DNA of 6,399 nt from a bacterium. Its GTDB lineage: Bacteria > 4484-113 > JALSIF01. This document shows, piece after piece, positions 2,959 through 6,399 of the stretch; positions within the stretch are counted from its first letter, which is position 1, and every line of letters starts with the position of its first letter. A model generated the notes under the pieces. That model worked only from the letters and a program-made list of their open reading frames with translations. It did not search any database and was not told the DNA's origin. The stretch is taken from assembly GCA_026981635.1 (NCBI GenBank), contig JALSIF010000016.1, positions 1 through 6,399 of the forward strand. Direction: 5' to 3'. The position numbers and the translations under genes were made by a program.

Positions 2959-4206
2959 CTACTCCTCCACCACCAGCGCAAGGTCGTCCATCCGGTCAAG
3001 CACCCTGAAGTCTCGCTTGGCGACGATCTTTGCCCGGGCGGGCCTTTCCCGGCCGGCAAGCTGATCTATCCAGCCGGTCAGGGTATCGCGGCTCATGGTG
3101 CCCACCGAGAGGTCCTGGGGGCTGGGCAGGATGCCGTCTTTTACCGCCTGGTCGTGGAGCTTGTTTAGCTCCTGCTCCAGCAGGCGGGCGGCGGCCGAGC
3201 GGGAGAGACCAGCGGGGACCTTGAAGCGGGAAAGCACCTCACCGCGACGGTAGACCACCTTCTGCTCGGTGGCCAGAAAATCAAGCCTCAGGCGGTCGCC
3301 CACAAAGAGGTTCTCCCGCGCCACCACGATGAGAACCATGTCCTGGTCGCTCTGGGAGAGCCGCTCGGCCACTCCGCTGATGATCTCTGGATCGGGCGGC
3401 TCAACCTCAATGTTTCGCTTCTCAAACTCAACCGTGAGTTTCTTTACCACCTGGCGTACCGCCTGCTCCACCTGGGCCTTACTCCAGCTTTTGGGGATGA
3501 GCAGGTAGAGCAGGGGGTTGTTGGCATAGAGCAGGACCTTGCTGTGGCGCAGGCGAAAGAGCTCCTCCTCCAGCTCCTGCCCCTCCTTCACCAGCGCGTC
3601 GCGCATCTGGCGCTGGAGCTCAATCTGCTTCTGCAGGCGGTCGCGCTCTTTGCGCAGCTCATCAATCTCCTTCTCAAAGCGGCTCTTTTCGGCAGAAAGC
3701 TCCTCCCTCACCCGTTGGTAGTCGCGGCGGGTCTTCTCCAGGTCGGCCTGGAGGGAGGCCAGCTCACCGGTAAGCTGGCTCAGGCGCCGGTTCTGGGCGG
3801 CCACTTCGCGGGAGAGGGTATCAAGCTGTGCGCGAAGCTCGTCCCGCTGGCGGGAAACCTTCTTTAGCTCTTCCTCGGCCCGCTCCCGCTCCCGGGAGAC
3901 CTCGGCCAGCCTGGCCCTGGCCTGCTGTAACTTCTCTCCCGTCTCACTCACCTGGCGCTGGAGCTGGTCAAACTCCAGGATCATCTCGCGCACGTTGTCG
4001 GAGCTTATGAGCAGGACGCCCAGGGTGGCGAGGGCGATGACGATGCCGGTGAGCACCGCGATGGCGCTGGAGATGACCCGGGGGCGCAGGCCCATGAGGG
4101 AGATCTTCCGCTTGGCCACCCGCCAGCCCACCCGGTCGGCGGTGTAGGCCACGATGCCCGAAAGCACCGCCAGAACCAGGGTAAAGATAATGCCCGTCCA
4201 GTTCAT
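2959..4206 (-). CDS. DUF3084-family membrane protein with long coiled coil
   Basis: The product has 415 residues from ATG 4206, which has AGGTGGAG 5 nt upstream; the open frame continues further upstream but the sequence there is not protein-like. Order of parts: membrane helix 1 (about 3-23), a basic loop with DRVGWRVAKRKISLMGLRPR (24-43), membrane helix 2 (about 47-68), a long heptad-rich coiled coil (about 71-220, dense in Glu, Arg, Leu and Gln), then a compact domain (about 222-415) with KVLLYANNPLLYLLIP and VLIVVARENLFVGD. The GWRVAKRKISLMGLRPR loop between two helices plus the coiled coil is the DUF3084 layout. The molecular function of that family is not established. The coiled coil points to oligomerisation or scaffolding at the membrane. 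It is followed by metG and divergent from the glutaredoxin-like gene. Confidence 0.88.
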   Translation of the reverse strand: MNWTGIIFTLVLAVLSGIVAYTADRVGWRVAKRKISLMGLRPRVISSAIAVLTGIVIALATLGVLLISSDNVREMILEFDQLQRQVSETGEKLQQARARLAEVSRERERAEEELKKVSRQRDELRAQLDTLSREVAAQNRRLSQLTGELASLQADLEKTRRDYQRVREELSAEKSRFEKEIDELRKERDRLQKQIELQRQMRDALVKEGQELEEELFRLRHSKVLLYANNPLLYLLIPKSWSKAQVEQAVRQVVKKLTVEFEKRNIEVEPPDPEIISGVAERLSQSDQDMVLIVVARENLFVGDRLRLDFLATEQKVVYRRGEVLSRFKVPAGLSRSAAARLLEQELNKLHDQAVKDGILPSPQDLSVGTMSRDTLTGWIDQLAGRERPARAKIVAKRDFRVLDRMDDLALVVEE

Positions 4207-4222
4207 CGCCGCTCCACCTGAG

Positions 4223-4249
4223 CCTAAGTTTAGGTGGCCTATGATTAGG
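4223..4249. promoter_or_regulatory. Tandem CCTA-N4-TAGG inverted motifs in a divergent promoter region
   Basis: The 48-bp gap between the divergent DUF3084 and glutaredoxin-like genes holds two copies of CCTA-N4-TAGG, at 4223-4234 and 4238-4249, offset by 15 bp. The first extends to CCTAA-GT-TTAGG. The second extends to GGCCTA-TGAT-TAGGCC (4236-4251). Possible -10 boxes for both genes fall inside them: TATGAT (plus strand) in the second and TAAACT (minus strand) in the first. Paired dyads over two divergent promoters look like operators for a dimeric repressor, which is an inference; hairpins in the nucleic acid are the alternative. Confidence 0.45.
4240..4245 (+). promoter_or_regulatory. Possible -10 box giving a near-leaderless transcript of the glutaredoxin-like gene
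   Basis: TATGAT matches the -10 consensus at five of six positions. Normal spacing puts the transcript start near 4252, only about 3 nt before the GTG at 4255, and that GTG has no Shine-Dalgarno site. The best -35 at 17-nt spacing is the weak CTGAGC (4217-4222). This suggests leaderless or near-leaderless expression, unlike metG with its strong ribosome-binding site. Confidence 0.3.
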
Positions 4250-4254
4250 CCTCC

Positions 4255-4521
4255 GTGGCGGGTGAAAAGCTCGACTTTGTGATCTACATGCGCAGGGGCT
4301 GTCACCTGTGCGAGGTGATGTATGAGCGCCTGCTCCTCCTCATTGAGGTGACCGGCTGGGAGGCGGAGGTTGAGCTGGTTGACATTGACCAGGACCCCGC
4401 CCTCCGGGAGCGCTATGGTGAGCTGGTGCCGGTGCTTGAGCTGAACGGCGAGGAGCTCTGCCACTTCAGGCTGGACGAGGAGCGGGTAAAGAGGGCGGTG
4501 GAGGCGCTCAGACCAGGCTAG
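4255..4521 (+). CDS. Glutaredoxin-like thiol-disulfide protein (DUF836 type)
   Basis: The product is an 88-residue thioredoxin-fold protein starting at GTG 4255. A first strand, FVIYM, leads into the redox motif GCHLC with Cys16 and Cys19 at the start of helix 1. VELVDIDQDPALRERYGELVPVLEL follows, with the conserved VDID-D turn and the cis-proline at Pro59 facing the active site. The C-terminus ends in a short helix (EERVKRAVEAL). Length and the CHLC + DID-D + YG-VPVL pattern match the DUF836/glutaredoxin-like family rather than full thioredoxins. Such proteins exchange disulfides in the cytoplasm; the substrate is unknown. A third Cys (Cys69) is not part of the motif. It is divergent from the DUF3084 gene and 180 bp upstream of the thiolase gene, so a functional link to either is not shown. 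Confidence 0.9.
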   Translation: MAGEKLDFVIYMRRGCHLCEVMYERLLLLIEVTGWEAEVELVDIDQDPALRERYGELVPVLELNGEELCHFRLDEERVKRAVEALRPG

Positions 4522-4525
4522 ATCA

Positions 4526-4598
4526 GGGCTCAGCCGAAATCCCCCGCTGCTAACAATCAACAGGTGTTGATTAGTCTGTTGACTTATGGGCTGAGCCC
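4526..4598. repeat. Nested inverted repeats between the glutaredoxin-like and thiolase genes
   Basis: The outer arms GGGCTCAGCC (4526-4535) and GGCTGAGCCC (4589-4598) are perfectly complementary over 10 bp and enclose 53 nt. Inside are two alternative 7-bp stems sharing the same left strand: AATCAAC (4555-4561) with GTTGATT (4566-4572), or TCAACAG (4557-4563) with CTGTTGA (4576-4582). They cannot form together. The outer arm begins 5 nt after the glutaredoxin-like stop, so a transcription end is possible, but no T-run follows the right arm. ATCAGG occurs at both ends (4522-4527 and 4601-4606), which could be chance. Confidence 0.6.
4555..4572. promoter_or_regulatory. 18-bp palindrome, possible operator upstream of the thiolase gene
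   Basis: AATCAAC-AGGT-GTTGATT is a perfect dyad of two 7-bp arms around 4 bp, about 130 bp before the thiolase start. The half-site core TGTTGA recurs at 4577-4582 and 4650-4655. TTGACT, a good -35 match, lies at 4579-4584, although the nearest -10-like TATCAG (4600-4605) is at a short 15-nt spacing. Size and symmetry suit a dimeric regulator of the TetR type, which often controls acyl-CoA genes; the link is inferred. Confidence 0.35.
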
Positions 4599-4701
4599 GT
4601 ATCAGGAGCGGAGAAACGACCGGTTGATAAAGCCCGCCGCGGTGGCCGGTGTTGATATCGGTTAAGCTTTCTGTGGAAAACTTTTGCCTGGGGGTGGCCA
4701 T

Positions 4702-6096
4702 TTGCAGCGAAGGACGAGCGAGGTCTACATCGTGGCGGGGGGCCTTACCCCGTTCAGTCGCGCTCAGCAGGAGGCCGACTTTCGGGAGCTCTGCCGGCAG
4801 GCCTTCGCCAGCGCCCTGGGACAGCTACCCGATCTTTCCACTGACGACATTGACGCGGCGGTGATGGCCTACTACTCGGACTACTTCACCAAGCAGTCCT
4901 CGGCCCATCTTGCGGTCCACGACTACCTGGGGCTTGCCCCTAGGCCCTGCATCCGGGTGGATGCGGCCAGCGCCAGCGGGGGGGCGGCGCTGCACACCGC
5001 CTACCTCATGGTGCAAAGCGGCTATGCCCATGTGGTGGTGGTGCTGGGCTTTGCCACCCTGGGGAGGGTCTCCACCAACCAGGCCATTGACCTGCTGTCT
5101 CTTTCCAGCGACATCAACTTTGAGTATCCCCTGGGGGTCTTCTGGTCGGGCTTCTTCGGCATGGTGGCCAACCGCCAGATCCACGAGCTGGGCTGGGACC
5201 CCAAGCTGTTTGACATGGTGAGCATCAAAAACCACGTCAACGCCACCTACAACCCCTACGCCCAGCGGCCCCTGGAGCTCACTCCGGAGGAGATCCACCG
5301 CTCAACCCTGGTCTCCACCCCCCTGCGCAAGCTCCACTGCTCGCTGATCAGCGAGGGGGCGGTCTGTCTGGTGGTGGCCAACGAGGAGTGGGCCTGGCGG
5401 CTGACCGAGCGGCCGGTGCGTATCGCCGGCATCGGGGCGGCCTCCGACACCCTCAGGCTGGCCGACCGGGACCACGGGCAGGTACCCCTGCTCCAGCACG
5501 AGGACCCCAGGCAGTATGAGAAGATGTACGAGCAGGGACTGCGCTATCCGGGAGTGCACCACTTTCGGGCCACCCGCATCGCCGCCCGGGAGGCCTACAT
5601 GGCGGCGGGGATCCACTTCCCGGTGGCGGAGATTGACTTTGCCGAGATCACCGACGCCTACGCCAACCTGGAAATCGCCACCTACGAGGACCTGGGCTTC
5701 TGTCCCCTGGGGGGTGGGCCCGACTTCCTGAGCTCGGGGGCGCCCATGATGCCGGGGATTGACTATGGGATGAGGGACCTGCCTGAGCGGGGAAAGCTCC
5801 CCGTCAACCCCTCGGGGGGGCTTTTGGCCTGCGGCCACCCCATCGGCGTCGGGGGGCTGATGCAGGCGGTGTTCGCCCTCTGGCAGCTCAGGGAGGAGCT
5901 GGCCAGCCGGTTTGCCGATCTCAGGAGCGAGGCGCAGATCTCCTTTACCCCCCTGCAGCTTGAGCGCCCCTTGCGCGGCCTGGTCCACTCCATGGCGGGG
6001 ACCGGCACCATGGCCACGGTGACCATCCTGGAAAGCCCCCTGGCCCGGGAGGTGGAGACGGTGGCGGGTGAGGGGGCGGGGGGATTCATGGAGTAG
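4702..6096 (+). CDS. Thiolase-superfamily protein with Ser at the nucleophile position
   Basis: The product has 464 residues from TTG 4702, chosen because GGGGGTGG lies 4 nt upstream and SEVYIVAGGLTPFSR then begins as in other thiolases; TTG 4684 is an in-frame alternative. It resembles SCP2/archaeal-type thiolases: KNHVNATYNPYAQ (177-189), CSLISEGAVCLVV (213-225), DAYANLEIATYEDLGFC (318-334), NPSGGLLACGHPIGVGG (369-385) and HSMAGTGTMATVTIL (429-443). Normal members join or cleave acyl-CoAs using a Cys nucleophile and the GHP His. Here His379 is present, but the usual 'ACASGG' reads ASASGG, putting Ser90 (AGC, 4969-4971) where Cys belongs. It is longer than the usual 390 or so residues, with extra sequence around 248-290 and 338-365. 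It is followed 15 bp later by a DUF35 partner. Superfamily membership is firm; ordinary thiolase activity is doubtful. Confidence 0.93.
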   Translation: MQRRTSEVYIVAGGLTPFSRAQQEADFRELCRQAFASALGQLPDLSTDDIDAAVMAYYSDYFTKQSSAHLAVHDYLGLAPRPCIRVDAASASGGAALHTAYLMVQSGYAHVVVVLGFATLGRVSTNQAIDLLSLSSDINFEYPLGVFWSGFFGMVANRQIHELGWDPKLFDMVSIKNHVNATYNPYAQRPLELTPEEIHRSTLVSTPLRKLHCSLISEGAVCLVVANEEWAWRLTERPVRIAGIGAASDTLRLADRDHGQVPLLQHEDPRQYEKMYEQGLRYPGVHHFRATRIAAREAYMAAGIHFPVAEIDFAEITDAYANLEIATYEDLGFCPLGGGPDFLSSGAPMMPGIDYGMRDLPERGKLPVNPSGGLLACGHPIGVGGLMQAVFALWQLREELASRFADLRSEAQISFTPLQLERPLRGLVHSMAGTGTMATVTILESPLAREVETVAGEGAGGFME

Positions 6097-6111: not shown

Positions 6112-6399
6112 ATGGCCATTGACCCGGAGTTCAGACTGCCCGAGGATGAGAGCCTGGCCGAGGGGAGCGTCATCTTCTCGGTGGAGCCGCTGGTGCTCAG
6201 GGACCACTTTGAGCTCACCTTCCTCCACTCCCTCGCCCAGGACTCCCCCTTCTTTACCAGCCTGGCCGAGGGGGTGCTCACCGGCAGCACCAACCCGGTG
6301 ACCGGGTTTACCTTTGCCACCCCGCGGGCCTGGGACCCCAGCCAGGGCCAGCCCACCCACCCCCAGGAGCTCCCCCCGGAGGGGCGGGTGCACACCTGG
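6112..6399 (+). CDS. DUF35/OB-fold thiolase-partner protein lacking zinc-ribbon cysteines (partial)
   Basis: The first 96 codons start at ATG 6112 with GGGAGG 10 nt upstream, and the frame runs off the right edge. DUF35 proteins carry an N-terminal helix, a rubredoxin-like zinc ribbon and an OB fold, and bind the thiolase and the CoA portion of its substrate. The stretch SPFFTSLAEGVLTGS (45-59) matches the family's 'FF-L-EG-L-G' lead-in. NPVTGFTFATPRAWDPSQG (61-79) aligns without gaps to the usual CxxCG...PPR..CxxCG ribbon, but the four Cys positions are Asn61, Thr64, Asp75 and Gln78. The GRVHTW at the end matches the first OB strand (GxVxTF/W). The ribbon thus appears to keep its fold length without metal. 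The pairing with the thiolase gene supports the family call, though the OB fold itself lies mostly beyond the edge. Confidence 0.8.
   Translation, partial: MAIDPEFRLPEDESLAEGSVIFSVEPLVLRDHFELTFLHSLAQDSPFFTSLAEGVLTGSTNPVTGFTFATPRAWDPSQGQPTHPQELPPEGRVHTW

What the first reader, a model, noticed from the sequence alone, without database searches (positions are those of the whole stretch)
4966..4977. Thiolase with Ser in place of the catalytic Cys
The nucleophile motif reads ASASGG, with Ser90 where the family has Cys, while the GHP histidine (His379) and the C-terminal glycine-rich loop remain. The C-terminal HSMAGTG loop also lacks the second Cys of biosynthetic thiolases, as in SCP2-type members. 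The frame is intact over 464 codons. Options are a Ser-based acyl transfer, a non-Claisen reaction such as retro-aldol cleavage (thiolase-fold Ltp aldolases are a known precedent), or a CoA-binding non-enzyme. AGC differs from TGC by one base, so a sequencing error must be excluded.
Basis: partly seen in the sequence, partly recalled or inferred. Interest (0 to 1): 0.65.

Follow-up and report, generated by a model that had tools for sequence, protein, structure and literature searches.

The report
Divergent cysteine-free thiolase-like protein
The protein looks like a thiolase but has lost the cysteine that thiolases use; its relatives lost it too (they carry glycine), so it probably performs or supports a different carbon-carbon bond reaction on CoA-bound acids, and its own serine is most likely a side effect of rapid divergence rather than a new nucleophile.

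Summary
Ser90 (AGC, 4969-4971) lies exactly in the thiolase nucleophile column; GHP His379 and the Cys-less HSMAGTG loop are present, the 464-codon frame is open and its codon usage matches metG. The comparison behind the title needs correcting: the nearest family (PRK06365-like, at most 49% identical) does not have Cys here. All 93 aligned family rows (about 90 genes, bacteria and archaea) carry Gly; none has Cys or Ser. So Cys was lost before, or apart from, this Ser. The window protein is a long-branch outlier that also lost residues invariant in the family: Tyr151->Phe, Tyr152->Phe, His431->Met, and nearly invariant His317->Thr. Downstream lies a truncated DUF35 (ChsH2-type) partner without zinc cysteines. 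Relatives sit with acyl-CoA dehydrogenases, B12 acyl-CoA mutases and once the methylcitrate cycle. The same plan (thiolase fold, Gly for Cys, DUF35 partner) occurs in the retro-aldolase Sal. Best reading: a Cys-free, DUF35-partnered acyl-CoA C-C lyase family, probably aldolase-like, of which this is a remodelled, perhaps reduced-activity member. Ser-based acyl transfer is weakly supported and a read error unlikely. The family's chemistry is untested.

The parts
4702..6096 (+). Thiolase-like CDS, 464 aa (start TTG 4702 or TTG 4684, not resolved), PRK06365-like, Thiolase_N + Thiolase_C_1
   Evidence: AlphaFold model pTM 0.90; closest folds 7yvy, 6esq, 4yzo
4969..4971 (+). Ser90 (AGC) in the nucleophile column: Cys in thiolases, Gly in the family
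4975..4977 (+). Ser92 (Ser of CxS; Thr in 92 of 93 family rows)
5143..5157 (+). Trp148, Phe151, Phe152: family has Tyr148 (92/93), Tyr151 and Tyr152 (93/93)
5650..5661 (+). TDAY motif (position of HDCF in SCP2 thiolase, YDCY in Sal, YDHF in Ltp2; HDAY in most of the family, YDAY in L014/L103)
5833..5841 (+). GHP motif with His379, invariant in the family
5986..6006 (+). HSMAGTG loop; no second Cys; family HSHAGTG, so His431 is Met here
6112..6399 (+). N-terminal 96 aa of a DUF35 (zf-ChsH2/OB_ChsH2_C type) partner, cut by the contig end; zinc cysteines replaced (N, T, D, Q)
   Evidence: 50% identical to the L005 partner; relatives' partners hit PF01796

Best explanation
The gene encodes a divergent member of a widespread thiolase-fold family (PRK06365-like) that works with a DUF35 (ChsH2 C-terminal-type) partner and has no nucleophilic cysteine. 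Without Cys it cannot form the acyl-enzyme of a thiolase. The family most likely makes or breaks a C-C bond next to a CoA thioester non-covalently, in the manner of the Ltp2 and Sal retro-aldolases: the beta-hydroxyacyl-CoA binds in the thiolase CoA pocket, a protein base takes the hydroxyl proton, and the enolate of the short acyl-CoA (acetyl- or propionyl-CoA) is held by the oxyanion hole and reprotonated. In this member Ser90 most likely replaces the family's Gly without acting as a nucleophile, and the pocket has been remodelled (Y151F, Y152F, Y148W, H317T, H431M), so substrate or activity differs from the rest. Shown: fold (predicted), column identity, absence of Cys in the family, partner gene, neighbourhood. 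Inferred: complex formation, aldolase-type chemistry, substrate class.
For: No Cys in the column in 93 family rows. Sal also has Gly there, cannot do thiolysis, and is a DUF35-partnered retro-aldolase (PMC12329534); Ltp2 is a second DUF35-partnered aldolase of this fold. Adjacent DUF35 gene in the window and in most relatives. Neighbours in relatives: acyl-CoA dehydrogenase (21 loci), B12-dependent acyl-CoA mutase subunits (13 loci; the residue that is Tyr in methylmalonyl-CoA mutase is Phe, as in isobutyryl-CoA mutase, in 7 of 10 matched, assignment from memory), 3-hydroxyacyl-CoA dehydrogenase, CoA ligase/transferase; methylcitrate cycle genes beside L103, consistent with a propionyl-CoA product. 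Model pTM 0.90 with thiolase fold, Ltp2 and Sal among the matches. Codon usage like metG (r 0.93) and retained His379, His429, Asp318, Tyr57, Asp60 argue against decay.
Against: The catalytic Tyr and Cys of Sal (YDCY) and the Tyr pair of Ltp2 are not conserved: the family has HDAY, the window TDAY. Invariant family residues that could replace them (Tyr151, Tyr152, His317, His431) are lost in the window protein. No substrate evidence. In the window's own contig only the DUF35 gene supports the context; the rest is from relatives at most 49% identical. No MaoC-type hydratase fusion was seen. The closest solved folds are Cys thiolases and ST0096, not the aldolases.
Confidence: 0.45

Rival explanations
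1. Reduced or lost catalysis: the window protein is a CoA-binding scaffold or regulatory pseudo-enzyme descended from the Gly family.
For: Departs at 59 of 199 columns that are at least 95% conserved, against 3 to 39 for six other members (65 for the distant L118); the lost side chains are acid/base types replaced by similar-sized, mostly apolar ones (Y->F, Y->F, Y->W, H->M); partner lost its zinc ligands.
Against: His379, His429, Asp318, Glu315, Tyr57 and Asp60 retained; normal codon usage; the partner's zinc loss also occurs in Chloroflexi whose thiolase-like protein keeps the full family site.
Confidence: 0.27
2. Ser90 is a true nucleophile forming an acyl-Ser intermediate for acyl transfer, as the Ser-His-His site of DpsC does in the KSIII branch.
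For: Correct column at the start of the nucleophile helix (H89-105 in the model); His379 and His429 present; Ser-His-His precedent in DpsC (PMC9573744); ST0096 (4yzo) also has Ser in this column.
Against: Every family relative has Gly, and the members sharing most rare residues, L014 and L103, also have Gly, so Ser probably arose from Gly, not by keeping a nucleophile; His317 is lost.
Confidence: 0.12
3. Early branch: Cys changed to Ser in this lineage and separately to Gly in the rest of the family, making Ser a survivor of an intermediate state. (This concerns origin and does not exclude the other readings of function.)
For: Ser92 and Ala89 match true thiolases rather than the family; one reduced tree puts the window outside most of the family.
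Against: The larger tree nests it with L014/L103 (96/88) and it shares 15 and 14 rare residues with them, against 7 at most with others; holding the rest of the family together without it gives p 0.06; long branch.
Confidence: 0.12
4. Sequencing or assembly error (TGC or GGC read as AGC).
For: One base separates AGC from TGC or GGC; the genome is a draft in 317 contigs and reads are not available.
Against: No relative has Cys; A89, S92 and many surrounding positions differ too; frame and codon usage are clean.
Confidence: 0.03

Closest known systems
PRK06365 / NF004982 'thiolase domain-containing protein' (NCBIfam, no function assigned)
   Same: Best profile hit by far (455.7 bits, residues 1-445); its relatives share the length and the DUF35 neighbour
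   Different: Below the model's cut-off of 695 (L003 and L014 reach 680); Ser not Gly in the column; lost Tyr151, Tyr152, His317, His431
Sal (steroid aldolase of Comamonas testosteroni, 9myr)
   Same: Thiolase fold, Gly in the Cys column (as in the family), DUF35 partner, acyl-CoA substrate (PMC12329534)
   Different: YDCY catalytic motif absent (TDAY here); 22% identity; Sal's partner domain is fused to a MaoC hydratase and keeps zinc
Ltp2-ChsH2(DUF35) (6ok1)
   Same: Thiolase fold repurposed as aldolase, DUF35 partner; Z 45.0
   Different: YDHF motif and second catalytic Tyr absent; 24% identity
Archaeal acetoacetyl-CoA thiolase of the thiolase/HMG-CoA synthase complex (6esq, 6et9)
   Same: Among the closest folds, with 7yvy; DUF35 partner in the complex; GHP
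   Different: Has the Cys nucleophile and does Claisen chemistry
ST0096, Sulfolobus tokodaii thiolase-like protein (4yzo)
   Same: Ser in the Cys column (VDNTSGSGG); Z 50.3
   Different: Separate subfamily, 32% identity; function not found in the papers held

Membership tests
Canonical / SCP2-type thiolase | Nucleophilic Cys in CxS | tested here: not met
   Ser90 here, Gly in all relatives
Canonical / SCP2-type thiolase | Thiolase fold with GHP His | tested here: met
   (fold from a predicted model)
Canonical / SCP2-type thiolase | HDCF (SCP2) or NEAF motif | tested here: not met
   TDAY
PRK06365 (NF004982) | Score over curated cut-off of 695 bits | tested here: not met
   455.7 bits; relatives at 566-681 are also below
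PRK06365 (NF004982) | Best full-length profile match and rare residues shared with members | tested here: met
Sal/Ltp2 CoA aldolases | No nucleophilic Cys | tested here: met
Sal/Ltp2 CoA aldolases | Catalytic Tyr of the YDxF/Y motif | tested here: not met
   Thr317 here, His in 91 of 93, Tyr in L014 and L103
Sal/Ltp2 CoA aldolases | DUF35 partner | tested here: met
   Adjacent gene 6112-6399, truncated; complex formation itself not tested
Sal/Ltp2 CoA aldolases | Retro-aldol activity | not testable with these tools
   Needs an assay

The most novel reading that the evidence does not exclude
An unrecognised family of DUF35-partnered, Cys-free thiolase-fold C-C lyases, spread over archaea and bacteria and tied to branched or propionyl-CoA metabolism with B12 mutases, uses a catalytic set different from Ltp2 and Sal; the window protein is an offshoot with a further changed site in which Ser90 takes part in catalysis.
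Probability: 0.15. Interest if true: 0.7.

Novelty: new variant of a known kind. Interest (0 to 1): 0.42.

Why it matters
A whole family annotated as thiolase or thiolase-domain protein lacks the residue that defines thiolase chemistry, so metabolic models that count it as a thiolase are probably wrong. Its partner and neighbours point to another group of thiolase-fold, aldolase-like enzymes outside steroid degradation. The window protein shows how far the site can drift.

Tried and rejected
Cys83 as alternative nucleophile: Ser or Gly in relatives. Sequencing error from TGC: no relative has Cys. Pseudogene: open frame and host-like codon usage. Mis-binned contig: its metG is the genome's only full-length copy and is 49-56% identical to those of the class, which fits the bin. 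Closer relatives with Ser: none in 61 loci of genome contigs or about 1,200 genomes searched; nearest 49%. Exact tree position: long branch, two trees disagree. Literature for this family or for ST0096's function: nothing found in the papers held. Steroid substrate: no steroid genes seen nearby.

Full report
Observation. The codons at 4966-4977 read A-S-A-S; the first Ser, S90 (AGC 4969-4971), aligns with the thiolase nucleophile: query VDAASASGG against VEAACASGS of the Methanothermococcus thiolase 6esq. The CDS 4702-6096 is open (464 codons), matches Thiolase_N and Thiolase_C_1 above their cut-offs, and has GC3 0.88 and codon usage correlated 0.93 with metG on the same contig. The contig ends at 6399 and its metG is the genome's only full-length copy.

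What the relatives have. A scan of one genome per species gave 61 loci, nearest 48-49% identical; searches of about 1,200 further genomes in four phyla added 39 loci, a few of them genes already found. In an alignment of 93 family rows (a few are the same gene found twice, two are distant) the nucleophile column is Gly in 93 of 93, followed by A-T-G-G in nearly all. Seven paralogous SCP2-type thiolases from the same genomes have Cys in five cases and Gly in two. So the closest family is Cys-free, and the window's Ser is unique within it. In the window's own phylum only this genome of ten holds the gene, and it is the genome's only Thiolase_C_1 protein.

How the window protein differs. It departs from 59 of 199 columns that are at least 95% conserved; six other members depart from 3 to 39. 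Losses include Tyr151->Phe, Tyr152->Phe and His431->Met, invariant in all 93 rows, and Tyr148->Trp and His317->Thr, nearly so. His379 (GHP), His429, Glu315, Asp318, Tyr57, Asp60 and Gln65 are kept. It shares 15 and 14 rare residues with L014 and L103, at most 7 with any other; these two have Gly in the column and YDAY instead of HDAY. A 76-row tree joins the three (96/88); a smaller tree puts the window further out, and holding the rest of the family together without it gives p 0.06. The branch is long, so Gly->Ser is favoured over Cys->Ser but not proved.

Partner and context. Sixteen bases downstream (after the stop at 6094-6096) begins a gene cut by the contig end; its 96 residues are up to 50-53% identical to the DUF35 genes that follow the family gene in most relatives, which hit OB_ChsH2_C and, where the zinc ligands are kept, zf-ChsH2. 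The four zinc cysteines are replaced in the window, and likewise in Chloroflexi partners. Around relatives lie acyl-CoA dehydrogenases (21 loci), the two subunits of a B12 acyl-CoA mutase (13 loci), 3-hydroxyacyl-CoA dehydrogenase, ordinary thiolase, CoA ligase and CoA transferase. In seven of ten matched mutases the residue that is Tyr in methylmalonyl-CoA mutase is Phe, as in isobutyryl-CoA mutase (the assignment is from memory). The L103 gene is followed by acyl-CoA dehydrogenase, PrpD-like, PrpB and methylcitrate/citrate synthase genes. Pyruvate dehydrogenase-type E1 and E2 genes lie near L002 and L014.

Structure. The AlphaFold model (pLDDT 84.9, pTM 0.90; residues 123-146 poor) is a full thiolase fold. 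Best matches: 7yvy (Z 52.9), 6esq (50.5), 4yzo ST0096 (50.3), BbsB, SCP2 thiolases, PhlC, Ltp2 (45.0) and Sal (43.9). ST0096 also has Ser in the Cys column.

Mechanism. Sal of Comamonas is a DUF35-partnered thiolase-fold retro-aldolase with Gly in place of the nucleophile, and its authors conclude that it cannot do thiolytic cleavage (PMC12329534). The family studied here repeats that plan, so a non-covalent C-C lyase or aldolase reaction on acyl-CoA is the most likely chemistry. The catalytic residues of Sal (Tyr302, Cys304) and Ltp2 (Tyr294, Tyr344) are not the ones conserved here; Tyr151, Tyr152, His317, His431, His379 and His429 are the family's candidates. Since the window protein lost four of these six, its activity may be changed or reduced. 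A Ser-based mechanism has a precedent in DpsC (PMC9573744) but no support from relatives.

Verdict. The Ser itself is probably incidental. The more interesting fact is that the whole family, annotated as thiolase, lacks the Cys.

Noticed in passing
6112-6399 and partner genes in L028, L031, L034, L045-L051, L054-L056: DUF35 partners have lost the four zinc-ribbon cysteines in the window and in Chloroflexi, while other relatives keep them; apparently separate losses.
   Followed up: partly
L074 and L077 (G012, G014): Two other SCP2-type thiolase-like paralogues also have Gly in the Cys column and GDP or GNP instead of GHP: more Cys-free subfamilies.
   Followed up: no
L126:129-7185 (contig of L103): Family gene followed by acyl-CoA dehydrogenase, PrpD-like, PrpB and methylcitrate synthase genes, with no DUF35 gene between.
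   Followed up: partly
L118, L119: Distant relatives (about 33% identical) with Gly in the Cys column, MHAVG instead of GHPVG, and Val for His429.
   Followed up: no
2959-4701, minus strand: DUF3084 coiled-coil protein; the listed ORF start is too long and overlaps the glutaredoxin-like gene 4255-4521, so the true start is probably near 4209.
   Followed up: no
421-855: Small protein with an N-terminal zinc-ribbon-like segment (sub-threshold PF13248) and a C-terminal hydrophobic helix.
   Followed up: no
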